This document shows, piece after piece, positions 1,656 through 63,311 of a stretch of 64,000 nucleotides of DNA. The notes beneath the pieces are model-generated. The model saw only the letters and a program-made list of their open reading frames with translations. It was not told the origin of the DNA and made no database searches. Made by a program: the position numbers and the translations under genes. This DNA is from a virus, in IMG/VR virus record IMGVR_UViG_3300042484_003148, positions 1 to 64,000 of that record. One strand, given 5' to 3'. The stretch's first letter is position 1; each line of letters opens with the position of its first letter.

Positions 1656-1961
1656 TTATAACCGACTTTTAAATTTTGAATGATTTTTAGCAATTCTTTT
1701 AGAAGTTTCTTCGATTGCATCTTTTATTTCTTTAGTAATCGGTTTACTATTTTGAAATAAATGTTTTGTTATTTTAGCGTTGTTAGGTACATATAATTTA
1801 TAACCAACATAAAACCAAATTATTATTTCTGTTATTCCAGTTAAACCTCGTAAGGTTGTGTCTGTATGCCTAATATTGGTAGCTAAATAACATAAATATT
1901 CTGATAGTGCAACTATCAAAGGATACAGTAGCATCCAAAGTACGAAGGGTAGGTTTTTCAT
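1656..1961 (-). CDS. Small membrane protein, 101 aa
   Basis: Two hydrophobic stretches are visible, about residues 4-27 (PFVLWMLLYPLIVALSEYLC) and 42-58 (GITEIIIWFYVGYKLYV), followed by a basic tail, so this is a likely two-pass inner-membrane protein. Its ATG overlaps the TGA of the upstream miniprotein by 4 nt, so translation is probably coupled. Function unknown; phage proteins of this shape can act in superinfection exclusion or lysis timing, but nothing here decides it. Confidence 0.7.
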   Translation of the reverse strand: MKNLPFVLWMLLYPLIVALSEYLCYLATNIRHTDTTLRGLTGITEIIIWFYVGYKLYVPNNAKITKHLFQNSKPITKEIKDAIEETSKRIAKNHSKFKSRL

Positions 1962-2092
1962 CTTTTATAAATTAATATATTGTTCGTCCAATTTTCAGAA
2001 TTAATCCAATTTTCATTAGTCTTAAGAAATTTAGTATATAACTTAGTGTTGTAAAGGTATATACCATCAGTATTGTTTATGTCTAGTTTCAT
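1958..2092 (-). CDS. MKL miniprotein, 44 aa
   Basis: Starts MKLDINNTDG and ends WTNNILIYKR, the typical miniprotein ends (family described at 7166-7306). ATGA overlaps link it to the gene before (stop 2089) and to the membrane gene after. Confidence 0.75.
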   Translation of the reverse strand: MKLDINNTDGIYLYNTKLYTKFLKTNENWINSENWTNNILIYKR

Positions 2093-2388
2093 ACAGTTTT
2101 TATTTTAACAGTATCTTTATGATAAATTGGTAATAAATAACAATCTTCACCTTCTAATAATCTTTTTACCATTAATGGTGTGTCATCAAAACCCATTTTG
2201 AAACAAAAGAAATCATTATCATCTGAACAATATGGACCTTTATTGTAACGTACACTAAATATACCATTACCATAATAAAGTGCTATATCCATTGTATTTT
2301 GGTTTTTATTTCTTAATAACAAGTAATAAACCTCACTACCATCATTTTCTTTTAAAACTTCCCAATTATAATCACCACATTGAATCAT
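2089..2388 (-). CDS. Hypothetical 99-aa protein
   Basis: Starts MIQCGDYNWEVLKEN. It alternates charged and aromatic residues in strand-like runs (YYLLLRNKNQ, GIFSVRYNKG), suggesting a small beta-rich soluble protein. It shares a 4-nt ATGA overlap with the downstream miniprotein. No family recognised. Confidence 0.65.
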   Translation of the reverse strand: MIQCGDYNWEVLKENDGSEVYYLLLRNKNQNTMDIALYYGNGIFSVRYNKGPYCSDDNDFFCFKMGFDDTPLMVKRLLEGEDCYLLPIYHKDTVKIKTV

Positions 2389-2417
2389 TTCAATGTTATT
2401 TATTGTTGTAATTTTTT

Positions 2418-2537
2418 TTATCTTGCAAATATATTAATTTGGTTGAGATAATTTAAGTCAACTAATCCTTGAATATGATTGTTGCGTAAAACAACATAAT
2501 TTTTAACCTGTTTTACACGAAATATTTTTAATTTCAT
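2418..2537 (-). CDS. MKL miniprotein, 39 aa
   Basis: Starts MKLKIFRVKQ and ends NYLNQINIFAR with a TAA stop. It follows the promoter at 2563-2593 by about 25 nt, so it is the first gene of its transcript. Confidence 0.72.
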   Translation of the reverse strand: MKLKIFRVKQVKNYVVLRNNHIQGLVDLNYLNQINIFAR

Positions 2538-2562
2538 CTTTCCAATATTTTATATTCAACGC

Positions 2563-2593
2563 AAACCTAACTAAAAGGTTTCAATAAAACAAA
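2563..2593 (-). promoter_or_regulatory. Promoter with extended phage motif
   Basis: The minus strand reads TTTG (2593-2590), 19 nt, then TAGGTTTG (2570-2563) continuing CGTTGAATATAAAAT. The spacer holds TTGAAACCTTTTA. It is nearly identical to the element before 7306 and shares TTGnAACCTTTTA-n3-TAGnTTTrCGTT with copies at about 19630, 24290 and 44350. Confidence 0.7.
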
Positions 2594-2632
2594 AATAATT
2601 GTTGGAAATCTTTTAAATAACCAACAATTATT
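2585..2632 (-). terminator. Rho-independent terminator
   Basis: A 12-bp inverted repeat (2594-2605 with 2621-2632, CCAACAATTATT arm) is followed on the minus strand by TTTTGTTTTATT. It lies 5 nt after the stop of the miniprotein at 2638 and ends the SbcCD transcript. Confidence 0.75.
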
Positions 2633-2637
2633 ATTTT

Positions 2638-2763
2638 TTATCTAACAAAAATGCCTAACCAATTACAATGATTTTTAGTAAGATTGGTAGTTCCTAAAAC
2701 AGTGCTTTTATAAAAAACTGTTGAAGTGAACGAAATTCCAAAGTCTGATTTTTTAAGTTTCAT
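2638..2763 (-). CDS. MKL miniprotein, 41 aa
   Basis: Starts MKLKKSDFGI and ends NWLGIFVR, stop TAA. It begins 3 nt after the SbcCD stop and is followed at once by a strong terminator, so it is the last gene of that operon. Confidence 0.72.
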   Translation of the reverse strand: MKLKKSDFGISFTSTVFYKSTVLGTTNLTKNHCNWLGIFVR

Positions 2764-2766
2764 ATA

Positions 2767-5700
2767 TCAATTAATACTAATCAAACTACAACCTTTTTCA
2801 TCAGCTGTTACAGTTAAACTGTAATCAACATTTAATTCATCACTGTAAGCGTGTTCAATGATGACTATTTTCTCAATTTTTTCTTTGATTTTATGAATTA
2901 ACTCAAAGAAATTAGTTACTGAATCACCAACTAGTTTACCTGTTACCTCATCTAAGAATAAAAAGTTACCTAATGATTTATTATTAATTGACCTTAATGC
3001 TAATCTTAATATAATCGAAATAAAGGTCCTTTCCATTCCGGAGCCACCAATTACATTTTGTATAGCTGTATTATCATTGTAACTATACATTTTTAATGTC
3101 ATATTTTCATCAAAATAAACATTAAAGTTACATAAATCATTGATTAAATTATGTATTTCATTGTTGATGTCTTCTCTCATATTTAATAAGAGTAATTTAG
3201 GTACACCATCTCTGTGAATACACTCAACATAACAAGTATTAATTTGTTCTTCAAGTTCTTGTTCTTGAAATTTACTTATTCTGTCATTAATTGTTTTAAT
3301 GTTATTTGTTAAGGTTGTAATAACATTATTTTCAATAAAACTAACATTTGCTTTAATTCCATTAACTTCATCTTGTAAAGTTTTTAATCTAGCATCGTAA
3401 GTATCTATTACCTTTTGAACCTTTTCATTTTCAATAACTTTATTGTTTTCAATAACAACTCTATCATAGGTATTTTTATTATTACCTATTTTCAAGTCAA
3501 CATTTTCAATTAATAAAGGAATGTTGTTCTTTTGGTTAACTAATTGTTGTCTTTTATCGAATTCTTCTTTTTCTTTTTCGATTTCAACAATTAATTCCTG
3601 GTTTTCTGACATCTTAACAGATGTATCCTCTAAATCTTGTTTGAAACGTATGATATTAGCTTCAAGTAACTTAATATCATTTTCAAAACCAACCTTTTTA
3701 CTCTCTTCATTTTTTATTTTGTTTAAAGATTCTGAAATTTTATCCTTTAATGATAATATTTCTTTGGTATCTTGTTCCTTAATATTATTTTCAAAACATT
3801 TAATAGTTTCTAATATACTAAGAATCTCAGGTGTATTATTTTTAGATTCCTCTAACTGGTTTATTTCAGTTTTTTTATCATTAATCTTATTTTGAATGAT
3901 AACTAACTGAGCTTTACCTAATTCTCTGTCACAAGATGGGCAAATTTTGCTTTTATCTAAAATTTCTATCTCAGATAAAATATTATTAATTTTAGAATCA
4001 ATCTGTTTATTAATTAAACCAATTTCTTGTTCTTTTAACTTGATTTTAGATTCTAAATTACCTAATTCTTTAGTAATATCAGTTTTAAAAGAATCAATAG
4101 ACCTGTTTAGAAGTAATATATTACCATTGCAAACAGCAATATCATTTCTAACTGAATCAACCTTATTAGTTGTTTCTTTAATATTCGATTTTACCCCAAT
4201 AAACTCGTTCTGTAATGAATCTTTTATACCACATAAGGTATTATATCGTTCAATGTTATAAGTGTCTCTTAGAATTGATATTTTTTGTTCAAGTTCTTTT
4301 TGAGAAACAAAATAACTATCTTTTTGTTCAATTAAAACATTTAATTCTTCTTTAAGTTTGTCAAGTGAAGTGTTAGCTAAGGCTTTGTCAATAGGATGTA
4401 ACTTTTTAAGTTCATTTTCCTTGTACTCTTGACCTGTTTTTAACCTTTTCTCTCTATCAACTAAAGAATCATTAAGTTCTTTGATTTTGTCTTTGTTGGT
4501 TTGAATTTCATCTTTTATTAATTGAATTTTAACCAATTCATCTTCTACTTTAAGAACTATTTTTTCTTCTTTTTTATAAAGTTCTTTTTTGTAGTCTTTG
4601 TATTCAGCTAATTTTCTTTCAAAAACATCTAAACCTGAATATTTTAAAATACTATCCATAAATACTGATTCATCCATTGATAATAAATTATTCAATGTAT
4701 CAGCATTAACTAAATATAAAGCTAAGAAATCATCAAATGAACCAATTATATTTGATAAATATTCCTGGTTTTTAGATTTTTCTTCATCAGTTTGGTTGAT
4801 TATTTCACCATTACTATCAATAAGATTGATTTTTAATGTTGTTGGACAAGCTGTAATCTTAGTTTTACTTCTATCCCACTTTCTTTCAGTTCTTCTAACT
4901 AAAGAAAATCTAGTTTCATCAACATTTATAATAGCACCTGATTCACAGTAATCTAAATCACGTTTGTTATTAATAAATCTGTTATCACCATTGGTTTCTC
5001 TTTTTAGAGTTTCTAATGTTTTACCATGTAATAAATATAAAATACCTGAAAGTAAATTGGTCTTACCAACTGCATTTTCACCCATAATTTGATACAAACC
5101 GTTGTTTTTATCCCAGTTCATTTCAAATCTATCAGCATGTGAACGATAGTTATCAATATAAAAAGATTCAATTCTCCAATCTTTTCTTTCAATACTATTA
5201 GATGCCCCTAATCTTTTATTAATTTTATTATCTATCTCAATAACTTTGTCAATAAATTCAGGTTCATAATTTTTATTTAACAAATGTTGTTTAAATACTT
5301 GTTGCTGTACATCGTAATTGGTAATATTAACCAAAGATTTTCTAACAAAATCATTCTCAACAATTTTATTGTTTCTTATTTTGTTTTCTTTCTTTTTAAC
5401 TTCAACAACGGTTGGGTATTTGGATTGTATAAATAACTTAATCTTTCTCCAATTTTCACTTGTAAAATTAATAGCATCATCGGTCCAATCAACTTTTACG
5501 TGAGTATATTTCTTAACCTCAGAAGATTTAAGTTTAATATTTAAATTATCGTAATCAATTGTTTCATCAACACCAGTACCTTTTAAGTAATAGTTAATGT
5601 AACTATATTCATTTTCAATCTCAATAAGTTCATGTTTTATGTTTTTAACATCTGAGATGTTCCATAAAATAAAGCCATGTTTATCAACAGATTCACCATA

Positions 5701-6345
5701 ATTATTTTGATATAATGATGATGGATATGCACCTTTAATTGATTTATCTTTATTATGAAATAACTGATATTGATGTATGTCACCCATTAATAATAAATCA
5801 CCTTCAAAGTCTTCTAAACTAACATATTTAGAATCTTCAAATTCTTGACCAAAAAATGTTCTTGAACCATTAATAGGGTCATGAAATAAATCAATAACTA
5901 ATTTATCTGTTGGTTTGGTAAAACCAGGTTCTAAAACCCAAGGTGATGTCTTGTCGCTATGATGCCATACTGACCAAATTACATTTTCATCATTGTAAAA
6001 TGTGGTCGCATCGTAATATTTAACCTTTGGGTTGTTAATCAAATTGATAACAGTATTTACTGAATCAACACGATTAACAGCTTTCATGTTAAGGTCATGG
6101 TTACCTAATGTAACTCGAACTTCAGCAATTTTAGATAGTTCATTCAAGAACCAACCACCAAGTTTTTTGGTTTCATTGTTTACTTTATTAAAATCATGAA
6201 ATAAATCACCAACTATAACTATTCTGTCAGGTTTAACCTCGATTAGTTTTTTGATTGTGTTTTCAAGAACTTGTTTTTGTCTTGCTTGATACTCAAGTTT
6301 ATTCATTAAATGAATATCTGAGAGGTGTGCTATGGTTTTTATCAT
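2767..6345 (-). CDS. Fused SbcD-SbcC (Mre11-Rad50) nuclease/ATPase
   Basis: This 1192-aa protein joins in one chain what T4 encodes as gp47 and gp46. Residues 1-250 are a Mre11-type phosphoesterase: SDIH (9-12), GDLFHD (46-51), GNHD (81-84), LFHD (153-156) and GDIHQ (188-192) supply the metal ligands. The Rad50 half has a Walker A motif GENAVGKTN (422-430), long coiled coils, a zinc-hook CPSC near 800, an ABC signature IGGSGMER near 1100 and Walker B FLFLDEVTG near 1130. The family resects double-strand ends for recombination-dependent replication. The ATG overlaps the TGA of a miniprotein by 4 nt. Confidence 0.93.
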   Translation of the reverse strand: MIKTIAHLSDIHLMNKLEYQARQKQVLENTIKKLIEVKPDRIVIVGDLFHDFNKVNNETKKLGGWFLNELSKIAEVRVTLGNHDLNMKAVNRVDSVNTVINLINNPKVKYYDATTFYNDENVIWSVWHHSDKTSPWVLEPGFTKPTDKLVIDLFHDPINGSRTFFGQEFEDSKYVSLEDFEGDLLLMGDIHQYQLFHNKDKSIKGAYPSSLYQNNYGESVDKHGFILWNISDVKNIKHELIEIENEYSYINYYLKGTGVDETIDYDNLNIKLKSSEVKKYTHVKVDWTDDAINFTSENWRKIKLFIQSKYPTVVEVKKKENKIRNNKIVENDFVRKSLVNITNYDVQQQVFKQHLLNKNYEPEFIDKVIEIDNKINKRLGASNSIERKDWRIESFYIDNYRSHADRFEMNWDKNNGLYQIMGENAVGKTNLLSGILYLLHGKTLETLKRETNGDNRFINNKRDLDYCESGAIINVDETRFSLVRRTERKWDRSKTKITACPTTLKINLIDSNGEIINQTDEEKSKNQEYLSNIIGSFDDFLALYLVNADTLNNLLSMDESVFMDSILKYSGLDVFERKLAEYKDYKKELYKKEEKIVLKVEDELVKIQLIKDEIQTNKDKIKELNDSLVDREKRLKTGQEYKENELKKLHPIDKALANTSLDKLKEELNVLIEQKDSYFVSQKELEQKISILRDTYNIERYNTLCGIKDSLQNEFIGVKSNIKETTNKVDSVRNDIAVCNGNILLLNRSIDSFKTDITKELGNLESKIKLKEQEIGLINKQIDSKINNILSEIEILDKSKICPSCDRELGKAQLVIIQNKINDKKTEINQLEESKNNTPEILSILETIKCFENNIKEQDTKEILSLKDKISESLNKIKNEESKKVGFENDIKLLEANIIRFKQDLEDTSVKMSENQELIVEIEKEKEEFDKRQQLVNQKNNIPLLIENVDLKIGNNKNTYDRVVIENNKVIENEKVQKVIDTYDARLKTLQDEVNGIKANVSFIENNVITTLTNNIKTINDRISKFQEQELEEQINTCYVECIHRDGVPKLLLLNMREDINNEIHNLINDLCNFNVYFDENMTLKMYSYNDNTAIQNVIGGSGMERTFISIILRLALRSINNKSLGNFLFLDEVTGKLVGDSVTNFFELIHKIKEKIEKIVIIEHAYSDELNVDYSLTVTADEKGCSLISIN

Positions 6346-6461
6346 TTTCTTGGAAATATTATTAGTGCGTTGTGGTTGGATTTAGTAGTAAAGTTTTTTA
6401 TACGTAACATTTCGATTTTATAATCTAGACCACTTAATAAACCTGTTATGTATAATTTCAT
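6342..6461 (-). CDS. MKL miniprotein, 39 aa
   Basis: Starts MKLYITGLLS and ends NALIIFPRK. Its TGA overlaps the ATG of SbcCD, so the nuclease gene is probably translated by coupling from this tiny gene. Confidence 0.75.
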   Translation of the reverse strand: MKLYITGLLSGLDYKIEMLRIKNFTTKSNHNALIIFPRK

Positions 6462-6589
6462 CTTTTTGTTATTATTAATCGGTTGTAGTGAATTTCGGGT
6501 ATATATCTTTCAGTTTTATTATTAATTCTATGAAAAACTCCACTATTATTGAATAGTACAAAGTTTGAGTTAGTTATTTTTAATTTCAT
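6458..6589 (-). CDS. MKL miniprotein, 43 aa
   Basis: Starts MKLKITNSNF and ends YNRLIITKR. ATGA overlaps on both sides. Confidence 0.75.
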   Translation of the reverse strand: MKLKITNSNFVLFNNSGVFHRINNKTERYIPEIHYNRLIITKR

Positions 6590-6705
6590 CTTCTTTCAAA
6601 AATTAATAACATGTTATGATTTCTTTTGTTTTGTAAAGTGAATTCAGATGTTATCTCACGTTTCCAGTTAAACGTTTTCAATAAAGCAGATATATCTAAT
6701 TTCAT
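6586..6705 (-). CDS. MKL miniprotein, 39 aa
   Basis: Starts MKLDISALLK and ends NMLLIFERR. ATGA overlaps on both sides; the upstream partner is the small membrane protein. Confidence 0.73.
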   Translation of the reverse strand: MKLDISALLKTFNWKREITSEFTLQNKRNHNMLLIFERR

Positions 6706-6911
6706 CTTTTAAATTTTTTATATAATTTATATAAAATATAACTTTTTAGTGAAAATCCAAATATAACTAAAATTATTATAAAATAACTATTATCTATTTG
6801 GAATATTAGATAGATATCTAATAAGCAAGCCACTAATAAGAATATTGATAACATAATACCTAGTTTCTTAAAGAAATTGAATTCTAATCTTTTGATTGTT
6901 TCTATTGTCAT
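6702..6911 (-). CDS. Small membrane protein, 69 aa
   Basis: Two hydrophobic helices (about 18-38, LGIMLSIFLLVACLLDIYLI, and 43-60, YFIIILVIFGFSLKSYIL) with a basic N-terminus and tail. It is embedded in the miniprotein array with ATGA overlaps on both sides. It has no MKL start. Function unknown. Confidence 0.7.
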   Translation of the reverse strand: MTIETIKRLEFNFFKKLGIMLSIFLLVACLLDIYLIFQIDNSYFIIILVIFGFSLKSYILYKLYKKFKR

Positions 6912-7039
6912 CTTGTGTAAATTGTTATGTAATTAATAAAATTATTTATATTTTTACCTGGTTTATGACTACCTTTCATAAAATTATAATCAGGACTTGT
7001 TAAGAAAAAGCTATTGGGTTTACTTATATTTAATTTCAT
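6908..7039 (-). CDS. MKL miniprotein, 43 aa
   Basis: Starts MKLNISKPNS and ends FINYITIYTR. It has the LTSPDYNFMKG form of the SxDYxxLxG core seen most clearly at 10327-10976. Confidence 0.75.
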   Translation of the reverse strand: MKLNISKPNSFFLTSPDYNFMKGSHKPGKNINNFINYITIYTR

Positions 7040-7055
7040 CTTTTGTAAATTATTA

Positions 7056-7169
7056 TTATCTGTCAAGAATTAATAAACGATTATAATTTATTTTTAAATC
7101 ACGTCCAGAAGTTATCATGTAATAAGGTGTTATATCACCTAAATAAGGTTTCCAAATTTTTAATTTCAT
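7056..7169 (-). CDS. MKL miniprotein, 37 aa
   Basis: Starts MKLKIWKPYL and ends YNRLLILDR, stop TAA, leaving a 16-nt gap before the next gene. Its ATG overlaps the upstream TGA. Confidence 0.73.
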   Translation of the reverse strand: MKLKIWKPYLGDITPYYMITSGRDLKINYNRLLILDR

Positions 7170-7306
7170 CTTTTAAATATTACCATTGCGTTACTCCATC
7201 TTTTTATCTTAATTTTACTTTTTTGTTTTCCAACTAAAACATGATAATAAAGATTATCACTAACAAAATTAACTTTATACGTACTATTATCTATTTCAAG
7301 TTTCAT
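7166..7306 (-). CDS. MKL miniprotein, 46 aa; first of the array and family description
   Basis: Starts MKLEIDNSTY and ends SNAMVIFKR. Family traits over about 48 members: 35-54 residues, start Met-Lys-Leu, a short first strand, a middle often reading SxDYxxLxG, and a last strand Asn-x-aliphatic-x-Ile-aromatic-x-Arg. Each stop usually overlaps the next start inside AAAAGATGAAACTT, so one DNA junction encodes the Lys-Arg end of one protein and the Met-Lys-Leu start of the next. At this base composition stop codons are frequent, so dozens of tiled frames with matching ends cannot be chance. No known family recognised; one compact beta unit per protein is a guess. Confidence 0.78.
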   Translation of the reverse strand: MKLEIDNSTYKVNFVSDNLYYHVLVGKQKSKIKIKRWSNAMVIFKR

Positions 7307-7330: not shown

Positions 7331-7362
7331 CAAATCTACATAAAAGGTTGCAATAAAACAAA
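7331..7362 (-). promoter_or_regulatory. Promoter with extended phage motif
   Basis: TTTG (7362-7359), 20 nt, TAGATTTG (7338-7331) followed by CGTTGAAGATAAAAT; the spacer holds TTGCAACCTTTTA. It starts the miniprotein-SbcCD operon about 25 nt before the first ATG. Confidence 0.72.
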
Positions 7363-10189: not shown

Positions 10190-10330
10190 TTATTTTGAAT
10201 AAATTTTAAGATAATTTAATCCATAATCAGTTAACTCTTCGTTAATATTTATGTTGTTTATGTAAAAATATACTGCTGAATATTTAAACCTAGGTGCTAG
10301 TTCAGTTAGGTTATCTATTTTTAGTTTCAT
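10190..10330 (-). CDS. MKL miniprotein, 46 aa
   Basis: Starts MKLKIDNLTE and ends LNYLKIYSK, stop TAA. It is the last member of this cluster; about 65 nt separate it from the 94-aa gene. Confidence 0.72.
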   Translation of the reverse strand: MKLKIDNLTELAPRFKYSAVYFYINNININEELTDYGLNYLKIYSK

Positions 10331-10464
10331 CTTGTATATATTGTTATGTAATTAAACCACCTTTCCCATAATTTATTAATAGTTCTTTCGCCTATAAGTA
10401 CCTCAAAATCACTTGATTCAGTAAATAACATAGTTTCAAAATTTGTTTCTATTATTAGTTTCAT
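10327..10464 (-). CDS. MKL miniprotein, 45 aa
   Basis: Starts MKLIIETNFE; core ESSDFEVLIGERTI; end WFNYITIYTR. A clear SxDY/W-NYIxIY subfamily member with ATGA overlaps on both sides. Confidence 0.78.
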   Translation of the reverse strand: MKLIIETNFETMLFTESSDFEVLIGERTINKLWERWFNYITIYTR

Positions 10465-10592
10465 CTTGTATAAATTTGAATGTAATTAGTCCAAACAGAA
10501 ATATCTTTGATTATAAACCTACCCATTAATAATTCATAATCAGCTGAATAAATAAAAATTATATCTGTATCTGTTTGTTGTTTAAGTTTCAT
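10461..10592 (-). CDS. MKL miniprotein, 43 aa
   Basis: Starts MKLKQQTDTD; core YSADYELLMGRFII; end WTNYIQIYTR. Close paralogue of 10845-10976, sharing MKLKQQTD, the ADY/VDY core and NYIQIY. Confidence 0.8.
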   Translation of the reverse strand: MKLKQQTDTDIIFIYSADYELLMGRFIIKDISVWTNYIQIYTR

Positions 10593-10720
10593 CTTTTGTA
10601 AATTGATAAATTATCTAAACCGAAAACACCTTTATCTAAACTGTTGATTATTTTGAATAATCTAGATTTTTTAAAAGGTATATCAGAATATTTTGGTCTG
10701 TTTAGTATTTTTAGTTTCAT
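10589..10720 (-). CDS. MKL miniprotein, 43 aa
   Basis: Starts MKLKILNRPK and ends LDNLSIYKR. It is more divergent in the middle than its neighbours. ATGA overlaps on both sides. Confidence 0.74.
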   Translation of the reverse strand: MKLKILNRPKYSDIPFKKSRLFKIINSLDKGVFGLDNLSIYKR

Positions 10721-10848
10721 CTCCAATAAACGTTTATGTAATTAGTCCATATTTCCCCTGGTTCTATTTCACGATGATTAATAAGTAAATCATAATCACT
10801 TGATTGGGAAAATCTTAAACTCTGATATTTTTCTATTCTAAGTTTCAT
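10717..10848 (-). CDS. MKL miniprotein, 43 aa
   Basis: Starts MKLRIEKYQS; core QSSDYDLLINHREI; end WTNYINVYWR. Strong subfamily member with ATGA overlaps. Confidence 0.78.
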   Translation of the reverse strand: MKLRIEKYQSLRFSQSSDYDLLINHREIEPGEIWTNYINVYWR

Positions 10849-10976
10849 CTTTTGTAGATTTGTATGTAATTAACCCAACTATAAATATCATTTATCTTGC
10901 CTTTGCTAGTTAATATTTCGTAATCAACTGAATCAACGAATTTGTTATCTATATCGGTTTGTTGTTTAAGTTTCAT
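10845..10976 (-). CDS. MKL miniprotein, 43 aa
   Basis: Starts MKLKQQTDID; core DSVDYEILTSKGKI; end WVNYIQIYKR. Paralogue of 10461-10592 two genes downstream, pointing to local duplication. Confidence 0.8.
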   Translation of the reverse strand: MKLKQQTDIDNKFVDSVDYEILTSKGKINDIYSWVNYIQIYKR

Positions 10977-11104
10977 CTCACAAATATACAAATTTTATTG
11001 CACCAAAATTTAACTAAATAATGGTCTCCATTATCTGATAATAAGAATCCTTGCATACCTGAATGATTAAAATCACCCATATCGTTGTATTGATTAACTT
11101 TCAT
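10973..11104 (-). CDS. MKL-type miniprotein (MKV start), 43 aa
   Basis: Starts MKVNQYNDMG and ends WCNKICIFVR. It has a Gly/Asp-rich middle instead of the DY core, but the same length and ATGA junction. It is the first gene after the long hairpin at 11119-11201. Confidence 0.7.
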   Translation of the reverse strand: MKVNQYNDMGDFNHSGMQGFLLSDNGDHYLVKFWCNKICIFVR

Positions 11105-11118
11105 ATTAATTTATATTT

Positions 11119-11201
11119 AAAAAGATAGGTTGTAAATTATATTACAGAACTTAATTGCGTCTGTTTTTATTTACATTTTTATAATTACAACCTATCTTTT
11201 T
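11119..11201. other. Long structured hairpin between genes
   Basis: AAAAAGATAGGTTGTAA (11119-11135) is the exact complement of 11185-11201, a 17-bp stem around a 49-nt loop that can form an inner ACAGA/TCTGT stem. The T run lies within the stem, so it could be a terminator for the minus-strand gene at 11202, a regulatory leader, or a small RNA. Confidence 0.6.
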
Positions 11202-11333
11202 TTATCTTTTGTAAATGTTTATATTATTAGTCCAATTTTCAACAGGACTTATAATACGTTCACCTATTAACAAAATATAATCTAGTGAATTTATAAATTC
11301 ATTATCCTCTTGGTAAATTACATCTAATTTCAT
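11202..11333 (-). CDS. MKL miniprotein, 43 aa
   Basis: Starts MKLDVIYQED; core NSLDYILLIGERII; end WTNNINIYKR, stop TAA. It begins 2 nt after the stop of the 245-aa gene. Confidence 0.78.
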   Translation of the reverse strand: MKLDVIYQEDNEFINSLDYILLIGERIISPVENWTNNINIYKR

Positions 11334-38298: not shown

Positions 38299-38451
38299 CT
38301 ACATAATTCTTCCATAAATAACTAATTGATTATTATGTAATTTTCTAAGAATGTCACCATCAAATGTTTCGCTAGTTCTAAGAAATAAACACATCATATT
38401 TGATGCATAATTGAAAGGTAGTACGAGTCTTTTGTCTATTATTAATTTCAT
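38299..38451 (-). CDS. MKL miniprotein, 50 aa
   Basis: Starts MKLIIDKRLV and has NNQLVIYGR near the end, followed by IM and a TAG stop. Terminal member of this array; the usual end motif is followed by two extra residues. Confidence 0.68.
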   Translation of the reverse strand: MKLIIDKRLVLPFNYASNMMCLFLRTSETFDGDILRKLHNNQLVIYGRIM

Positions 38452-38579
38452 CTTGGAACTATTATTAATTTATTTTTATAGTGTCTAATATCAGTTTTGG
38501 TTCCTATTAATGTTGGAATAAAAACTGAACAAAATTTCCAATCTCGGTCATTACTTTTGTTTTTTATTACAAGTTTCAT
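38448..38579 (-). CDS. MKL miniprotein, 43 aa
   Basis: Starts MKLVIKNKSN and ends YKNKLIIVPR. ATGA overlaps on both sides. Confidence 0.74.
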   Translation of the reverse strand: MKLVIKNKSNDRDWKFCSVFIPTLIGTKTDIRHYKNKLIIVPR

Positions 38580-38707
38580 ATTTCCTCGTATCTTGATAAT
38601 ATTATTAACTTATTGTAAATTCTAAAACCAATTAATCTATCTTCTAGGTAATCTTGATATATTTCAAAGTCAATTTTAAGATGTTGGGTGTGAATGTCTA
38701 ATTTCAT
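38576..38707 (-). CDS. MKL miniprotein, 43 aa
   Basis: Starts MKLDIHTQHL; the end motif YNKLIILSR is followed by YEEI. Its TGA overlaps the next ATG. It begins 5 nt after the stop of the 80-aa gene. Confidence 0.72.
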   Translation of the reverse strand: MKLDIHTQHLKIDFEIYQDYLEDRLIGFRIYNKLIILSRYEEI

Positions 38708-38711
38708 TGTA

Positions 38712-38954
38712 TTATACAATTTTAAGTAATTCAGTTAATGACTTGACCATTATTTTATCAAAATTACCTTCTATTTTATCAGTTATTTGTAAATATAACA
38801 TATCTTTAAAATTATTATCACTAACACATAACTTGATATTGTTATAAATAAATTCAAAACCTTCATCATTTATTTTAAAATCAATTATAACATTATATTC
38901 TTTTTGAATAAGTGTAATATAATTATTACAAAAGTTTGTATACATAATTTTCAT
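38712..38954 (-). CDS. Hypothetical 80-aa protein
   Basis: Starts MKIMYTNFCNNYITLIQKEY, and has ITDKIEGNFDKIMVKSLTEL near the end. It may be a doubled or extended relative of the miniproteins, but the end motif is missing. ATGA overlap with the upstream miniprotein. Confidence 0.65.
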   Translation of the reverse strand: MKIMYTNFCNNYITLIQKEYNVIIDFKINDEGFEFIYNNIKLCVSDNNFKDMLYLQITDKIEGNFDKIMVKSLTELLKIV

Positions 38955-39073
38955 CTTCTAACTATTATTAATTTATTGGACCAATATTTGACACTACCGC
39001 AACTTGCACTAATATTTCTAGGAACATTAATATGAAAACTAGTTAAACTTATTGTTTTTATTTCAAGTTTCAT
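38951..39073 (-). CDS. MKL miniprotein, 40 aa
   Basis: Starts MKLEIKTISL and ends WSNKLIIVRR. It starts at the stop of the primase gene (TAAAATG) and has an ATGA overlap downstream. Confidence 0.75.
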   Translation of the reverse strand: MKLEIKTISLTSFHINVPRNISASCGSVKYWSNKLIIVRR

Positions 39074-40004: not shown

Positions 40005-40136
40005 TTATCTTATGTAAATTATTAATTCATTAAAAAAATCTTGTTCTTTGAAGAGTTTTAAATAATACTGGTCGTTTATTAAAACATTTTCAAATGTATC
40101 TGTATGGTCTACTATACCGTTTATTTTAAGTTTCAT
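40005..40136 (-). CDS. MKL miniprotein, 43 aa
   Basis: Starts MKLKINGIVD and ends FNELIIYIR, stop TAA; 5 nt before the primase ATG. Confidence 0.75.
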   Translation of the reverse strand: MKLKINGIVDHTDTFENVLINDQYYLKLFKEQDFFNELIIYIR

Positions 40137-40282
40137 CTTTTTCTAACTAACATTAAATTTAATAAACCACATTCATTGAAATTGCTATAAATGTAATTGG
40201 TTGAATATTGTTGAGTAATTTCTTTGTACAACCAATATTCTTTATTGAATTCTCGTCTTGTTATTTCAATTCCAAGTTTCAT
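40133..40282 (-). CDS. MKL miniprotein, 49 aa
   Basis: Starts MKLGIEITRR; has FNKEYWLYKEI in the middle and ends LMLVRKR. A member of the NxEYWxxK subfamily with the next three genes. Confidence 0.75.
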   Translation of the reverse strand: MKLGIEITRREFNKEYWLYKEITQQYSTNYIYSNFNECGLLNLMLVRKR

Positions 40283-40422
40283 CTTTTTCTAATAATTAAC
40301 ATATCTAATAACATATCACTATTAAGATAAATTTATTTATCATCAAATTTATTTATTTTTTTATATATCCAATATTCGCTATCAAACTGTAATGTCGGAT
40401 TTATGTCTGTTATAAGTTTCAT
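40279..40422 (-). pseudogene. MKL miniprotein with in-frame TAA
   Basis: Reads MKLITDINPTLQFDSEYWIY and on to KKINKFDDK, then TAA (40335-40333), then in the same frame IYLNSDMLLDMLIIRKR and the TGA. The intact paralogue at 40419 has NNEYWMFKSINK and LLNDERNMLMDILIIRKR. So one nonsense change splits an otherwise preserved gene; the 29-aa product may be what is made. Confidence 0.65.
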
Positions 40423-40565
40423 CTTTTTCTAATAATTAATATATCCATTAACATATTACGTTCATCGTTTAGTAGATAATTGTTTAATTTATTTATTGAT
40501 TTAAACATCCAATATTCGTTATTGAAAGATAAATTTATTCCAGTTTTTTCAATCCAAAGTTTCAT
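40419..40565 (-). CDS. MKL miniprotein, 48 aa
   Basis: Starts MKLWIEKTGI; core FNNEYWMFKSINK; end LMDILIIRKR. Intact sister of the broken copy at 40279. ATGA overlaps. Confidence 0.77.
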   Translation of the reverse strand: MKLWIEKTGINLSFNNEYWMFKSINKLNNYLLNDERNMLMDILIIRKR

Positions 40566-40687
40566 CTTTTTCTAATAGTTAACATATCACATTTATGTAA
40601 ACCTATACGTTTTTCTTGAATAAGTTTATAAATAAGATTATATTTATTGAAAGTTAAATCAATATTTACGTTTATACCAAGTTTCAT
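40562..40687 (-). CDS. MKL miniprotein, 41 aa
   Basis: Starts MKLGINVNID; middle FNKYNLIYKLI; end CDMLTIRKR. Same subfamily as the three genes downstream. It begins 1 nt after the TGA of the kinase-like fragment. Confidence 0.75.
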   Translation of the reverse strand: MKLGINVNIDLTFNKYNLIYKLIQEKRIGLHKCDMLTIRKR

Positions 40688-41040: not shown

Positions 41041-41056
41041 AAATTAACAATACAAA
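41026..41056 (-). promoter_or_regulatory. Bacteroidota-type promoter
   Basis: TTTG (41056-41053), 19 nt, TACCTTTG (41033-41026): a near-ideal match. It overlaps the tnpB end and drives the fragment, the miniproteins and primase. Confidence 0.65.
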
Positions 41057-51178: not shown

Positions 51179-51214
51179 AATTTAGGTTTTAAAGTTAATT
51201 AAGATTGAAGAACA

Positions 51215-51279: not shown

Positions 51280-51417
51280 TTATTTTGTAAAAATAAGTAA
51301 ATAATTTAAACCTAAATTATTTAATGGGATTACATTAGAATAATTACCTATACATAATACATATTCATAACTAATTTTAAACTTGTATTCTTCTTCTATA
51401 TAATATTTTAGTTTCAT
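51280..51417 (-). CDS. MKL miniprotein, 45 aa
   Basis: Starts MKLKYYIEEE; middle ISYEYVLCIG; end LNYLLIFTK, stop TAA. Last of a four-gene array. Confidence 0.73.
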   Translation of the reverse strand: MKLKYYIEEEYKFKISYEYVLCIGNYSNVIPLNNLGLNYLLIFTK

Positions 51418-51557
51418 CTTTTAAATATTATTAAATGTCCTGAATGAGTTTTAATAGTTACAACATTGTCTTTTATTTTATTTTCTATCTTTTTATAAAT
51501 CAAACCTTCACTAAATGTAAAGATAGAACTAGTTAAATTTCCAATTTTTAATTTCAT
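51414..51557 (-). CDS. MKL miniprotein, 47 aa
   Basis: Starts MKLKIGNLTS; middle FTFSEGLIYKKI; end GHLIIFKR. The middle resembles its upstream neighbour (KFTEGGIYNLI). ATGA overlaps. Confidence 0.75.
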   Translation of the reverse strand: MKLKIGNLTSSIFTFSEGLIYKKIENKIKDNVVTIKTHSGHLIIFKR

Positions 51558-51688
51558 CTTTTAAATAATTTAAGGTCGTTTAATAAATAATTGTAAGATT
51601 TTGTTACATCTTCATCTATAATTAAATTATAAATACCACCTTCGGTAAATTTCCAACTTGATATTAAATCAGATATAAGAAGTTTCAT
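51554..51688 (-). CDS. MKL miniprotein, 44 aa
   Basis: Starts MKLLISDLIS; middle WKFTEGGIYNLI; end LNDLKLFKR. ATGA overlaps on both sides. Confidence 0.75.
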   Translation of the reverse strand: MKLLISDLISSWKFTEGGIYNLIIDEDVTKSYNYLLNDLKLFKR

Positions 51689-51792
51689 CTTTTAAATGTT
51701 AATAATTTGTTATTTAATGTATTAGCTGATAAAAGTAATTGAAAAATAACCTTATCAAATATTATGTGGTTACTGGCTCTTTTAAGTTTCAT
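51685..51792 (-). CDS. MKL miniprotein, 35 aa (shortest)
   Basis: Starts MKLKRASNHI and ends LNNKLLTFKR. One nucleotide after the stop of the 244-aa gene. Confidence 0.7.
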   Translation of the reverse strand: MKLKRASNHIIFDKVIFQLLLSANTLNNKLLTFKR

Positions 51793-59820: not shown

Positions 59821-59985
59821 TTAGTAACTATTGATTATTAACGTGTTATACCTACTAAATATTTTTAATTCATTTAAATGAATATCTCTAATAACAACAT
59901 ATCTTAAAAAATCTTTATTTATTATGGTTGATAAACCTGAATCAGTAAAGGACTGATAAAATTGGTTGTTTATTTTAAGTTTCAT
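59821..59985 (-). CDS. MKL miniprotein, 54 aa (longest)
   Basis: Starts MKLKINNQFY; middle SFTDSGLSTII; NELKIFSRYN then NTLIINSY, stop TAA. The end motif appears once in place and again extended. Last of the largest array. Confidence 0.7.
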   Translation of the reverse strand: MKLKINNQFYQSFTDSGLSTIINKDFLRYVVIRDIHLNELKIFSRYNTLIINSY

Positions 59986-60113
59986 CTTTTATATATTAAA
60001 ATTTCATTTATAAAAGGGTATGATAATTGTGGATTACCACCTAGATTAAACATAATAACTATTTCAGTATTTTTAAAGTATGTATTTTTTGAAAAGAATA
60101 ATTGTAATTTCAT
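59982..60113 (-). CDS. MKL miniprotein, 43 aa
   Basis: Starts MKLQLFFSKN and ends INEILIYKR. ATGA overlaps. Confidence 0.74.
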   Translation of the reverse strand: MKLQLFFSKNTYFKNTEIVIMFNLGGNPQLSYPFINEILIYKR

Positions 60114-60244
60114 CTTTTATATAACCTTAATTTGTTGTTAAAATGTAAATGAAACATCGCATTAGTTTTACCACTTAAAACATAATATATACCATGATTA
60201 ATGAAATAATCAAATTGATTTGCTGTGTATATTTTAAGTTTCAT
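60110..60244 (-). CDS. MKL miniprotein, 44 aa
   Basis: Starts MKLKIYTANQ; middle NHGIYYVLSGK; end NNKLRLYKR. ATGA overlap downstream; 8 nt after the membrane gene stop. Confidence 0.75.
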   Translation of the reverse strand: MKLKIYTANQFDYFINHGIYYVLSGKTNAMFHLHFNNKLRLYKR

Positions 60245-60252
60245 CTGTAATA

Positions 60253-60663
60253 TTATTTAAAATATTCAATTAATATAATACCTAAACTAAACAAACAACC
60301 TATTATGAATTTAGTTAATAAAGGTTTAAACGGTGATTTTAATAGAACTTTGTCCATAAATGCATTATTTTCACTAGTACCAATATATTCAGTAGGGAGG
60401 TTTCTTAGTTTGTTTAAATAATAATCAGCAATTAACCAATTAATATCCCAAAGAAGAAATATAAGCAAAGGTATCGACCAAACTGATAAGTGATATGTTA
60501 ACCCTAATATAGGTGCAATAATACAGGGAATAATAACCCTTAATAAAGGTTGATGTTCAATAAATTCATCATTTTTTATTTTCTGATAATCAGTAACAAT
60601 GTGGTCAATCATTGAAATAACCCAAATAGTTAAGTTGATAATGAGTAGAGGTAGTAAAATCAT
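60253..60663 (-). CDS. Membrane protein, 136 aa
   Basis: Three or four hydrophobic helices: MILLPLLIINLTIWVISMI (1-19), LRVIIPCIIAPILGLTYHLS (about 41-60), WSIPLLIFLLWDINWLIADY (about 62-81) and FIIGCLFSLGIILIEYF (end). Embedded in the miniprotein array. Function unknown. Confidence 0.7.
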   Translation of the reverse strand: MILLPLLIINLTIWVISMIDHIVTDYQKIKNDEFIEHQPLLRVIIPCIIAPILGLTYHLSVWSIPLLIFLLWDINWLIADYYLNKLRNLPTEYIGTSENNAFMDKVLLKSPFKPLLTKFIIGCLFSLGIILIEYFK

Positions 60664-60665
60664 GG

Positions 60666-60803
60666 TTATCTTGGATAAATAATTAGTGAGTTTTGAAAGA
60701 CTTTGAAATAATTGGAGCTTGGACTTGTTTTACCATCCTTTAAATATAAACCACTACGGTAAGTAAATAAACTAGTAAGTTTAGTTCTTATATGTAATCT
60801 CAT
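60666..60803 (-). CDS. MKL-type miniprotein (MRL start), 45 aa
   Basis: Starts MRLHIRTKLT; middle FTYRSGLYLKDG; end QNSLIIYPR, stop TAA, 2 nt before the membrane gene. Confidence 0.73.
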   Translation of the reverse strand: MRLHIRTKLTSLFTYRSGLYLKDGKTSPSSNYFKVFQNSLIIYPR

Positions 60804-60928
60804 TATCTTGGATATAAAGTTATTTCGTTATAATTTATTAATATTTCTGTATTCGGTAAACCTAAAAGTAACCCACCAGTTACAGTGTTTTGTAGTTTAA
60901 CGGCTCTGTAATTAATTACTAGTCTCAT
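60803..60928 (-). CDS. MKL-type miniprotein (MRL start), 41 aa
   Basis: Starts MRLVINYRAV and ends YNEITLYPR; TAATG overlap with the next gene instead of ATGA. Confidence 0.72.
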   Translation of the reverse strand: MRLVINYRAVKLQNTVTGGLLLGLPNTEILINYNEITLYPR

Positions 60929-60941
60929 CTTCGGTAAATTA

Positions 60942-61064
60942 TTAGTTTATTTTTTTATAAACACCAATATGACCATCATCAAAGTGTATTCTCTTATCTG
61001 TTAAATATTCACCTAAAACATACCACGTAAATTGATTAATCCTGATTGTTGTTTTAAGTTTCAT
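60942..61064 (-). CDS. MKL miniprotein, 40 aa
   Basis: Starts MKLKTTIRIN; middle FTWYVLGEYLTDK; end HIGVYKKIN, stop TAA. The end motif is altered. Its ATG overlaps the upstream TGA. Confidence 0.7.
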   Translation of the reverse strand: MKLKTTIRINQFTWYVLGEYLTDKRIHFDDGHIGVYKKIN

Positions 61065-61198
61065 CTTTTGTAAATTCTAAGGTTATTTAAATATACAGTT
61101 TTTGCTTTGTTGATTTTTTCAGCAAAATCACCCACTAAAATATTAAATATACTGTAACATTCTAATTTTTCAATAGGTTTGGATATTTTAAGTTTCAT
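61061..61198 (-). CDS. MKL miniprotein, 45 aa
   Basis: Starts MKLKISKPIE; middle YSIFNILVGDF; end LNNLRIYKR. ATGA overlaps on both sides. Confidence 0.76.
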   Translation of the reverse strand: MKLKISKPIEKLECYSIFNILVGDFAEKINKAKTVYLNNLRIYKR

Positions 61199-61464
61199 CT
61201 TTTCTCCAATTTATGTCTGCAAAATATCCTAATTATATCAACCAAATCTTGTTCGGTTTCTATTGGGTAGAAATTTCCGTTAAATAACTCAACAGTGAAA
61301 TTGTTATCAATACATTCTGATTTACAATTTGTAATCAAAGCTTCTTGATAAAACTTTTTATCAATTTGTTCTAAATCCAAACAAAGGTAATAATCTTTAT
61401 CACCATCGAATTCGTTACATAGTTCACGTTTGAAACCGTATTTTTTTAATATTTCTTCTTTCAT
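61195..61464 (-). CDS. Hypothetical 89-aa protein
   Basis: Starts MKEEILKKYGFKRELCNEFD; acidic, with Cys in CNEF, CLDL, NCKSEC and FCRHK. No zinc-site spacing is clear. It ends in KLEKR, the Lys-Arg-stop being forced by the shared AGATGAAACTT junction. Function unknown. Confidence 0.66.
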   Translation of the reverse strand: MKEEILKKYGFKRELCNEFDGDKDYYLCLDLEQIDKKFYQEALITNCKSECIDNNFTVELFNGNFYPIETEQDLVDIIRIFCRHKLEKR

Positions 61465-61485
61465 CTTTTATAAATTCTTTAAGTT

Positions 61486-61602
61486 TTATTTAATAAATAT
61501 ATTTAAACAGTTTTTACTCAGTAAAATATCTATAATATCTAACTGTAAGTAGGTTAATTCAAAATCTGAATCTTCAGACCAATGTTCTATATTAAGTTTC
61601 AT
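61486..61602 (-). CDS. MKL miniprotein, 38 aa
   Basis: Starts MKLNIEHWSE; middle DFELTYLQLDII; end KNCLNIFIK, stop TAA. Confidence 0.71.
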   Translation of the reverse strand: MKLNIEHWSEDSDFELTYLQLDIIDILLSKNCLNIFIK

Positions 61603-61709
61603 CTTTTATACTGTAATATTATGTTATTATATTTTAAATCAATGATAATTTTGATAATATCTGGATACATAAATTCAATATCAGACCATGAGTACTGTTA
61701 AAGTTTCAT
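61599..61709 (-). pseudogene. MKL miniprotein with TAA at codon 4
   Basis: Reads M-K-L then TAA (61700-61698), then, still in frame, QYSWSDIEFMYPDIIKIIID and ends NNIILQYKR with the usual ATGA junction. The downstream neighbour at 61486 has a similar middle (HWSEDSDFELTYLQLDIID). Probably a recently broken copy; the frame beyond the stop is still clean. Confidence 0.62.
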
Positions 61710-61711
61710 AT

Positions 61712-62047
61712 TTATCTAATTTTATTCAAATATTTCTTTATTAAATTATCATCTTCGTAAATAACACCAATAGTTACTTCGTATTGATTTTTATCTTTAC
61801 TAACCTTGGATATTTTACAATCTTTAAACAACATCTTGGTTTTTTCATCAAATTCAATAACAAATTCAAGTCCTAGCTTTTCAGTATTGGTTAGTTTTTT
61901 AATACTTTCAAATACAAATATAACATATTCACCCTGTACTCCAACACAAGAACCGTTTTTTATTTTTTCGTATTCAAAAATAGGTAATGTTTTGCATTCT
62001 ATTTCGTAAATTAACCCTTTAGTTGGTGTTATTAAGTTTGCTTGCAT
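61712..62047 (-). CDS. Hypothetical 111-aa protein
   Basis: Starts MQANLITPTKGLIYEIECKT; a beta-rich pattern (GVQGEYVIFVFESIKKL, QYEVTIGVIYEDD). No family recognised. Its start overlaps the upstream membrane gene by 29 nt. Confidence 0.64.
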   Translation of the reverse strand: MQANLITPTKGLIYEIECKTLPIFEYEKIKNGSCVGVQGEYVIFVFESIKKLTNTEKLGLEFVIEFDEKTKMLFKDCKISKVSKDKNQYEVTIGVIYEDDNLIKKYLNKIR

Positions 62048-62237
62048 CTTTGTAAATGTATTTCTTGTATAAATAGACTAATAAACTTAGTATTGCTGCT
62101 AGTATTAATAGTGCAGGTATAATACCTAGAGGTAATAAAATTATAAACCAATTATAGGTTATTATTTTGGTTAGTTTTAAATAAATCAACATTATTTGTA
62201 GTTGACCTATTAGGATGTATAAGTAGTTGCGTGTCAT
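62019..62237 (-). CDS. Small membrane protein, 72 aa
   Basis: Two hydrophobic helices (YLYILIGQLQIMLIYL, and WFIILLPLGIIPALLILAAI to about residue 56) and a Lys-rich tail. ATGA overlap with the upstream miniprotein. Function unknown. Confidence 0.67.
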   Translation of the reverse strand: MTRNYLYILIGQLQIMLIYLKLTKIITYNWFIILLPLGIIPALLILAAILSLLVYLYKKYIYKDASKLNNTN

Positions 62238-62359
62238 TGTTTTAATATAATAATGTAGTTTATAAAGTGCATACTATAGTTTTGTTTGATTAAAATATGT
62301 TTTATTAAGCTATCATTCAAAACGTTGCTCCAACTGTAATCAAATATATTAAGTTTCAT
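62234..62359 (-). CDS. MKL miniprotein, 41 aa
   Basis: Starts MKLNIFDYSW and ends INYIIILKQ. The last Arg is replaced because its junction joins the membrane gene (CAATGAC). Confidence 0.72.
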   Translation of the reverse strand: MKLNIFDYSWSNVLNDSLIKHILIKQNYSMHFINYIIILKQ

Positions 62360-62469
62360 CTGTCGTAAATTATTAGTTTATTGTAATGTGTTTTTACAGT
62401 TTTTATATAATTTAATTGTTTACCTGTATATATTACAAAATCAGTAAAAAGAAATATTTTAAGTTTCAT
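62356..62469 (-). CDS. MKL miniprotein, 37 aa
   Basis: Starts MKLKIFLFTD and ends YNKLIIYDR. ATGA overlaps. Confidence 0.76.
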   Translation of the reverse strand: MKLKIFLFTDFVIYTGKQLNYIKTVKTHYNKLIIYDR

Positions 62470-62582
62470 CTTTTAATTAATAAAATTTCATTAGAATGAT
62501 AACGTTTTTGTAAAACAAAAAACTCTGTTGTTAAATATTTAGGTACGTTATAATTAGGAATAACTTGGGTTTTAAGTTTCAT
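62466..62582 (-). CDS. MKL miniprotein, 38 aa
   Basis: Starts MKLKTQVIPN and ends SNEILLIKR. ATGA overlaps. Confidence 0.75.
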   Translation of the reverse strand: MKLKTQVIPNYNVPKYLTTEFFVLQKRYHSNEILLIKR

Positions 62583-62698
62583 CTTTCAAATATAATTAAT
62601 TTATTATAACGGATTTTGTCAATAATATAATTTAAAGACTCATCATGTTTTACTGTAAAACCTTTGTAAGGTACTATATCTAGTATTTTAAGTTTCAT
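62579..62698 (-). CDS. MKL miniprotein, 39 aa
   Basis: Starts MKLKILDIVP and ends YNKLIIFER. ATGA overlaps. Confidence 0.76.
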   Translation of the reverse strand: MKLKILDIVPYKGFTVKHDESLNYIIDKIRYNKLIIFER

Positions 62699-62829
62699 CT
62701 TACAAAGATATAAATAATATTTTTAGAAACAACGCATTTTAGTCTATTTCCGAAAATAATTCTTCCATTAACATTTTCTATGTAACCTGAATCTAAATTT
62801 ATACCTGTTCTATTAAAGTCAAGTTTCAT
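62695..62829 (-). CDS. MKL miniprotein, 44 aa
   Basis: Starts MKLDFNRTGI; middle LDSGYIENVNGRII; end KNIIYIFVR. ATGA overlaps. Confidence 0.75.
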   Translation of the reverse strand: MKLDFNRTGINLDSGYIENVNGRIIFGNRLKCVVSKNIIYIFVR

Positions 62830-62942
62830 CTGTTATAAGTTCTTAATGCGTTATAACGTTTAAAATAAATTACAGCAATTAATGTACTAGATGTAAATTT
62901 AACCCAATTTGTACTTTGAGTATTAAATATTTTAAGTTTCAT
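62826..62942 (-). CDS. MKL miniprotein, 38 aa
   Basis: Starts MKLKIFNTQS and ends YNALRTYNR. ATGA overlaps. Confidence 0.74.
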   Translation of the reverse strand: MKLKIFNTQSTNWVKFTSSTLIAVIYFKRYNALRTYNR

Positions 62943-63070
62943 CTGTAAGTTAAATATAATGAATCAGTTTTAAATGTGGTCCATACATCTTTTTTGATTA
63001 ACAAGTTAAATGCTAATGTATAATATTCTTTTTTATTATTCTTTGAATCTGGATTTATCTTAAGTTTCAT
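62939..63070 (-). CDS. MKL miniprotein, 43 aa
   Basis: Starts MKLKINPDSK; middle KEYYTLAFNLLI; end TDSLYLTYR. ATGA overlaps. Confidence 0.74.
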   Translation of the reverse strand: MKLKINPDSKNNKKEYYTLAFNLLIKKDVWTTFKTDSLYLTYR

Positions 63071-63180
63071 ACCCTTCGATGAATTAATAGTTTGTTAGAA
63101 CGTTTATCTTTACGTTGAACATGAATATCAATAATAAATTCAAGAAAATTAATAGGAAATATAGTTCTTTTAAGTTTCAT
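63067..63180 (-). CDS. MKL miniprotein, 37 aa
   Basis: Starts MKLKRTIFPI and ends SNKLLIHRRV. ATGA overlaps; one residue follows the usual Arg. Confidence 0.74.
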   Translation of the reverse strand: MKLKRTIFPINFLEFIIDIHVQRKDKRSNKLLIHRRV

Positions 63181-63311
63181 CTTTGGTAAATTCTTATTTT
63201 ATTATTCCATGTTTTGTTATGTAGTTTACCAGATAAACCTTTTGTTAGTAAATCAAAACTAGTTGTCTCGTTATAATTTAAATCACTTAAATTTAATATT
63301 AGAAGTTTCAT
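63177..63311 (-). CDS. MKL miniprotein, 44 aa
   Basis: Starts MKLLILNLSD; middle ETTSFDLLTKGL; end WNNKIRIYQR. It directly follows the 5' nuclease gene. Confidence 0.76.
   Translation of the reverse strand: MKLLILNLSDLNYNETTSFDLLTKGLSGKLHNKTWNNKIRIYQR

What the first reader, a model, noticed from the sequence alone, without database searches (positions are those of the whole stretch)
6342..7306. One repeated junction serves as stop, ribosome site and start
AAAAGATGAAACTT recurs between genes: AAA AGA TGA ends one protein (Lys-Arg-stop), ATG AAA CTT starts the next. With no Shine-Dalgarno in this host group, the arrays may depend on termination-reinitiation. The junction also forces part of the protein ends, so the N- and C-terminal conservation is partly a DNA constraint. 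SbcCD itself is entered through such a junction.
Basis: partly seen in the sequence, partly recalled or inferred. Interest (0 to 1): 0.75.

Follow-up and report, generated by a model that had tools for sequence, protein, structure and literature searches.

The report
Chained mini-gene arrays in a phage
A giant phage that probably infects Bacteroidetes carries about 159 tiny related genes chained head to tail so that each stop codon overlaps the next start codon (ATGA); the repeated "junction" is the seam of this array, and its conserved ends mark a new family of small proteins more than a special ribosome site.

Summary
The exact 14-mer occurs 13 times in the window, all on the minus strand, but not once inside 6342-7306, where only 1-3-mismatch variants lie. 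SbcCD is entered through an ATGA overlap, not through that motif.

The motif is the seam of a previously undescribed family of ~43-aa proteins (MKLxI...F...NxLxIYxR). I called 47 in the window and 159 across two contigs that abut and seem to be one ~265-kb T4-like phage. Of 134 neighbouring mini-gene pairs, 109 overlap by exactly ATGA, against 4 of 169 large-gene pairs.

Contexts support, without proving, reinitiation. Array-first starts look like this genome's ordinary starts; internal starts lack A at -6 and -13 but are weakly structured. No Shine-Dalgarno was found.

The "DNA constraint" claim is half right. Codon-3 CTT is strongly non-random, but equally in genes with no upstream junction. 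Basic C-termini persist in array-last genes ending in TAA, and unrelated genes overlapping a mini-gene start never end in AGA. Arg itself is more frequent at junctions (92% versus 41%).

ATGA coupling is known. The protein family and the scale of chaining are new, with no match in Pfam, PHROGs, PDB or other collections searched.

The parts
7166..7306 (-). mini-gene 1 (array-first), MKLEIDNSTYK...VIFKR; ATGA overlap with next
7331..7361 (-). Bacteroidetes-type promoter candidate TTG-N20-TAGATTTG; -7 element ends 24 nt before the first ATG of the array
   Evidence: consensus TTTG/TANNTTTG from PMC6847099
7056..7169 (-). mini-gene 2, ends AGA TAA (no overlap with next; 16-nt gap containing a junction remnant)
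6908..7039 (-). mini-gene 3; ATGA overlap into the guest gene
6702..6911 (-). guest gene, 69 aa, hydrophobic, not of the mini family; ends KKFKR AGA TGA overlapping the next start
6586..6705 (-). mini-gene 4
6458..6589 (-). mini-gene 5
6342..6461 (-). mini-gene 6, ends PRK AAA TGA overlapping the SbcCD start
2767..6345 (-). fused SbcD-SbcC-like nuclease, 1192 aa, entered by ATGA overlap
   Evidence: phrog_35725 1e-48, phrog_77 3.5e-26
1958..2763 (-). three more mini-genes downstream of SbcCD (2638-2763, 2418-2537, 1958-2092)
10190..11333 (-). array of 8 mini-genes
38299..39073 (-). array of 4 mini-genes
40005..40687 (-). array of 5 mini-genes, one broken by an in-frame TAA (40333-40422)
51280..51792 (-). 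array of 4 mini-genes
59821..63311 (-). array of 17 mini-genes with guest genes; further mini-genes lie outside the window at 64384-66486

Best explanation
The junction is the seam of tandem arrays of a small-protein gene family in a T4-like jumbo phage of a probable Bacteroidetes host. Shown by sequence: about 159 paralogous genes of 29-62 aa (median 44), chained by exact 4-nt ATGA overlaps; a rapidly diverging middle between conserved ends; no Shine-Dalgarno. Inferred: each array is read from one leading start with ordinary Bacteroidetes-type context (host-type promoter candidates are seen before some arrays only), and the internal starts are served largely by ribosomes that terminate at the overlapping TGA and reinitiate at the ATG one base back, on weakly structured, A-rich mRNA. 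The conserved ends are kept mainly because they are parts of the protein, plausibly two strands of one sheet, with an extra nucleotide-level preference at the start (AAA CTT) and at the junction Arg codon. Arrays grow by tandem duplication, with recombination at the repeated seams the likely route. The proteins are probably small phage effectors of early or middle infection (inference only).
For: Overlap of -4 in 109/134 adjacent mini-gene pairs versus 4/169 large-gene pairs. Profile searches recover the family with E down to 1e-12. Start contexts: A-6 15/109 internal, 12/22 array-first, 106/196 large genes; A-13 27/109, 14/22, 124/196; A-3 95/109, 12/22, 117/196. Mean MFE of 40 nt around internal starts -1.25 versus -3.08 kcal/mol mid-gene, p = 2e-12. 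SD motif 0/196, 0/109, 0/22. Promoter candidates TTG-N20-TAG(A/G)TTTG 20-24 nt before several array-first genes. K/R C-terminus in 24/34 array-last genes versus 32/196 large genes, p = 5e-10; MKL at array starts with no upstream gene. AlphaFold model for one member: beta-alpha-beta, pLDDT 90.5. Closest paralog within 1 kb for 38/159 versus 6.8 expected, largest of 2000 shuffles 19. Published: ATGA pairs couple in archaea and bacteria, and Bacteroidetes do so without SD (PMC6728339).
Against: No expression data exist, so coupling is inferred. Internal starts keep A at -3 and low structure, which could support independent initiation. Some arrays keep intact genes downstream of broken ones (40333-40422, 61599-61714). 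Only 9/22 array-first genes have TAnnTTTG in -60..-10 (internal 9/109, large genes 31/196), so the one-promoter-per-array picture is not general. The second structure prediction, on another member and alignment, gave pLDDT 77, pTM 0.34 and no strands, so the fold is not settled. Arg is more frequent at junctions than in array-last genes (100/109 versus 14/34), so a junction-level constraint cannot be excluded.
Confidence: 0.66

Rival explanations
1. Each mini-gene initiates independently on its own A-rich, weakly structured start; the ATGA overlap is only compact packing inherited with the duplicated unit.
For: A-3 in 95/109 internal starts and low structure at the seam; Bacteroidetes initiate without SD using A at -3, -6, -12, -13 (PMC6847099); intact genes lie downstream of broken ones.
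Against: Internal starts lack A-6 and A-13, which array-first and large genes have; exact -4 spacing in 109/134 pairs.
Confidence: 0.25
2. The seam is chiefly a nucleotide element (ribosome-binding or recombination signal), and the protein ends are conserved because of it.
For: Leu-3 CTT 65/105 versus 78/599 interior (p about 1e-29 over all genes); Tyr -3 TAC 31/56 versus 109/410 interior, p = 3e-5; Arg 100/109 at junctions versus 14/34 in array-last genes; 5 of 6 unrelated large genes entered from a mini-gene by ATGA begin ATGAAA.
Against: CTT is as frequent (13/20) in array-first genes with no junction; K/R C-termini persist with TAA stops; unrelated genes overlapping mini-gene starts end in AGA 0/6 times.
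Confidence: 0.2
3. A programmed -1 frameshift at AAAAGATGA joins the mini-proteins into polyproteins.
For: The next gene always lies in the -1 frame; an A-rich stretch precedes the stop.
Against: The seams read by eye do not form an X XXY YYZ slippery site; the region is weakly structured; every internal gene keeps ATG, and array-first genes have the same MKL start.
Confidence: 0.03

Closest known systems
Translational coupling by termination-reinitiation at -4 nt (ATGA) overlaps (PMC6728339)
   Same: Co-directed genes with overlapping stop and start; no SD needed in Bacteroidetes
   Different: Studied on gene pairs; here one gene family is chained by the same overlap more than 100 times in one phage; coupling not measured
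Bacteroidetes-type gene starts (Flavobacterium johnsoniae, PMC6847099)
   Same: No SD; A at -3, -6, -12, -13 in large genes and array-first genes; TTTG/TANNTTTG promoter candidates
   Different: Internal mini-gene starts lack A-6 and A-13
Small early genes of T4-like phages (general knowledge)
   Same: Many small, poorly conserved genes in replication regions of a T4-like genome
   Different: Those are mostly unrelated to each other; here one family of about 159 members dominates
Flavobacterium phage immuto (Immutovirus, MW353177)
   Same: T4-like phage of a Bacteroidetes host; terminase 28% identical
   Different: No mini-gene family and no AGATGAAAYTW seam in its 160 kb

Membership tests
ATGA translational coupling | Stop and start codons of co-directed genes overlap by 4 nt | tested here: met
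   109/134 mini-gene pairs versus 4/169 large-gene pairs
ATGA translational coupling | Downstream translation depends on upstream translation | not testable with these tools
   needs reporters or ribosome profiling
ATGA translational coupling | Start context weaker than that of independently initiated genes | tested here: inconclusive
   A-6 and A-13 depleted, but A-3 enriched and structure low
Bacteroidetes-type expression | No Shine-Dalgarno before genes | tested here: met
   0/196 large genes
Bacteroidetes-type expression | TTTG / TANNTTTG promoters before arrays | tested here: inconclusive
   clear for several arrays including the one at 7306; TAnnTTTG in 9/22 array-first versus 9/109 internal
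Known protein family (Pfam, PHROGs, PDB) | Significant profile or fold match of the mini-proteins | tested here: not met
   single-member matches at E 0.007 or weaker; no fold hit below E 2
Programmed -1 frameshift polyprotein | Slippery heptamer followed by structure | tested here: not met
   sequence of the seams; mean MFE -1.25 kcal/mol
T4-like phage | gp23-like head protein, T4-type terminase and baseplate wedge | tested here: met
   phrog_138 4e-57, phrog_2 3e-36, phrog_219 1e-16

The most novel reading that the evidence does not exclude
The arrays are a diversifying library of small phage proteins in which one repeated seam serves both as reinitiation site and as recombination point, so that cassettes can be duplicated, exchanged or lost while every remaining gene stays translatable; the invariant ends form the fold and the middle is the variable, target-binding part.
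Probability: 0.3. Interest if true: 0.78.

Novelty: new variant of a known kind. Interest (0 to 1): 0.55.

Why it matters
ATGA coupling has been studied mostly on gene pairs. About 159 mini-genes of one family chained this way (21.5 kb, roughly 8% of the genome) in a phage whose host group lacks Shine-Dalgarno would be a natural test bed for how far reinitiation can be chained, how strongly it decays along an array, and how phages evolve sets of tiny proteins. The family is unannotated, and genes this short are easily missed by standard gene calling.

Tried and rejected
Two-phage comparison: G001 first looked like a second phage with its own arrays, but its first 255 bases match the first 255 of G000 in inverse orientation at 99.6%, no core gene checked is duplicated, and the other ends of both contigs lie in copies of one IS605-type element. 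I therefore treat them as one genome and claim no independent homologs. Pattern scans of IMG/VR and GTDB gave other loci (L017, L019, L020, L037-L039, L041-L083, L085-L092), but none encodes the family. Relatives of SbcCD, DNA polymerase and terminase in IMG/VR: none confirmed. An independent rerun of the fold on the G001 members did not reproduce the strands. Selection on the variable middle: for seven same-array paralog pairs pooled by hand, pN is about 0.29 and pS about 0.42, so constraint is weak; lower-identity pairs are unreliable and were not used. Searches of the held papers for a described phage array of this kind found none.

Full report
What is there. The window is the first 64 kb of a 195,283-base virus record, G000, at 26.6% GC. 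A 14-mer search with up to 2 mismatches finds 36 sites in the window, all on the minus strand, against 4.8 expected. Reading the sites shows that most are the seam between two tiny genes: AAA AGA TGA ends one and ATG AAA CTT begins the next, the overlap being ATGA. In the interval given (6342-7306) there are six mini-genes and one 69-aa guest gene in front of SbcCD. Six of the seven boundaries are ATGA overlaps, but none carries the exact 14-mer; the second mini-gene ends in TAA, 16 nt before the next start. SbcCD is entered through AAAATGATAAAA, an ATGA overlap without the motif.

How much of it there is. An iterative profile search over translated ATG frames, followed by removal of two doubtful calls and addition of four in-array members, gives 159 genes: 47 in the window, 27 in the rest of G000 and 85 in a second contig, G001 (69.9 kb, IMGVR_UViG_3300042484_002853). 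Lengths are 29-62 aa, median 44, and the genes add up to 21.5 kb. The consensus is MKLxI...F...NxLxIYxR. G001 is probably not a second phage: its first 255 bases equal the first 255 of G000 in inverse orientation at 99.6%, none of the core genes checked is shared between the two, and the other ends of both contigs fall in copies of one IS605-type element. I read them as adjacent pieces of one genome of about 265 kb; the sum is inference. The phage is T4-like (major head protein, terminase, baseplate wedge, DnaB). The named relatives I looked at by terminase, including Flavobacterium phage immuto (28% identical), lack the family. A 5.7-kb contig from another sample (L016) is 100% identical to G000. 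Other pattern hits in IMG/VR and GTDB do not encode the family, and Pfam, PHROGs and PDB hold no convincing relative.

Is the -4 overlap special? Yes. Of 134 adjacent co-directed mini-gene pairs 109 overlap by exactly 4 nt; of 169 adjacent large-gene pairs, 4 do.

Is translation coupled? Not shown. What the sequence says: no gene group carries a Shine-Dalgarno motif (0/196, 0/109, 0/22). Published determinants of initiation in F. johnsoniae are A at -3, -6, -12 and -13 (PMC6847099). Array-first mini-genes match large genes at these positions (55/55/64/64% versus 60/54/64/63%). Internal mini-genes have A-3 in 87% but A-6 in only 14% and A-13 in 25% (p = 1e-12 and 1e-10 against large genes). The seam is less structured than mid-gene sequence. 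Promoter candidates of the Bacteroidetes type lie 20-24 nt before several array-first genes, including TTG-N20-TAGATTTG before the array at 7306, but only 9 of 22 array-first genes have TAnnTTTG in the -60..-10 region. ATGA pairs are known to be coupled in other organisms, and Bacteroidetes use no SD there either (PMC6728339). Together this favours reinitiation over independent starts, at roughly 2.5 to 1 in my judgement.

Is the conservation of the ends a DNA effect? Mixed. N-terminus: codon 3 is CTT in 65/105 internal and 13/20 array-first genes, against 78/599 Leu codons in mini-gene interiors and 1/13 codon-3 Leu in large genes. This is a nucleotide-level signal, or a trace of common descent or conversion, but it does not depend on a junction. 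C-terminus: among 34 array-last genes with TAA or TAG stops, 24 end in K or R (large genes 32/196, p = 5e-10), so the basic end is kept without a junction. At junctions Arg is at 100/109 against 14/34 in array-last genes, and Tyr -3 is TAC in 31/56 against 109/410 in interiors, so an added junction effect is likely. Unrelated genes whose stop overlaps a mini-gene start by ATGA end in AGA 0 of 6 times, so AAAAG is not a requirement for such an overlap; two small in-array guest genes do end in AAA AGA. Of six large genes entered from a mini-gene by ATGA, five start ATGAAA, against 21 of the 82 large genes whose second codon begins with A.

Protein and evolution. AlphaFold on one member with 80 aligned sequences gives beta-alpha-beta at pLDDT 90.5, with strands at 4-12 and 37-42, that is, the conserved ends. 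A second member with its own alignment gives pLDDT 77 and no strands, so this stays tentative. Fold searches found nothing. The closest paralog lies within 1 kb for 38 of 159 genes against 6.8 expected, which points to tandem duplication. Broken members exist (in-frame stop at 40333-40422, stop at codon 4 near 61714, shifted C-terminus at 60942-61064), so the arrays turn over. Function is inferred only: small phage proteins beside replication and nucleotide-metabolism genes.

Verdict. The seam is real and far from chance, the mechanism proposed is plausible and of a known kind, and the larger finding is the array family itself.

Noticed in passing
window 2767-6345 (-): SbcD (metallophosphoesterase) and SbcC appear fused in one 1192-aa protein.
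   Followed up: partly
G000 1-255 and G001 1-255: The two IMG/VR contigs abut in inverse orientation (99.6% over 255 bases), and their other ends break in copies of an IS605-type element, suggesting one genome of about 265 kb.
   Followed up: partly
window 20615-21895 (-), 44766-46373 (+); G000 135250-136551: IS605/TnpB-type genes (20615-21895 by Pfam OrfB_IS605; 44766-46373 by PHROG transposase). A copy at G001 15086-16366 is 92% identical in protein to the one at 20615 and 32% to the one at 135250.
   Followed up: no
window 41044-42768 and G000 122928-124655: A 574-aa gene of unknown function present twice at 77% DNA identity, in opposite orientation.
   Followed up: no
window 51129-51259; G000 120740-120944, 151248-151450: A dispersed repeat of about 130-200 bases, 87-89% identical; two of the copies hold a promoter-like TTG...TAnnTTTG before a gene.
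   Followed up: no
window 12207-13490 (-): GIY-YIG homing endonuclease between a mini-gene array and the DNA polymerase gene.
   Followed up: no
window 40333-40422, 60942-61064, 61599-61714 (-): Broken mini-genes: in-frame stop, apparent frameshift near the C-terminus, and a stop at codon 4.
   Followed up: partly
L030 9672-10190 (G001): A dihydrofolate reductase gene entered from a mini-gene by ATGA overlap and itself starting ATG AAA CTT.
   Followed up: partly
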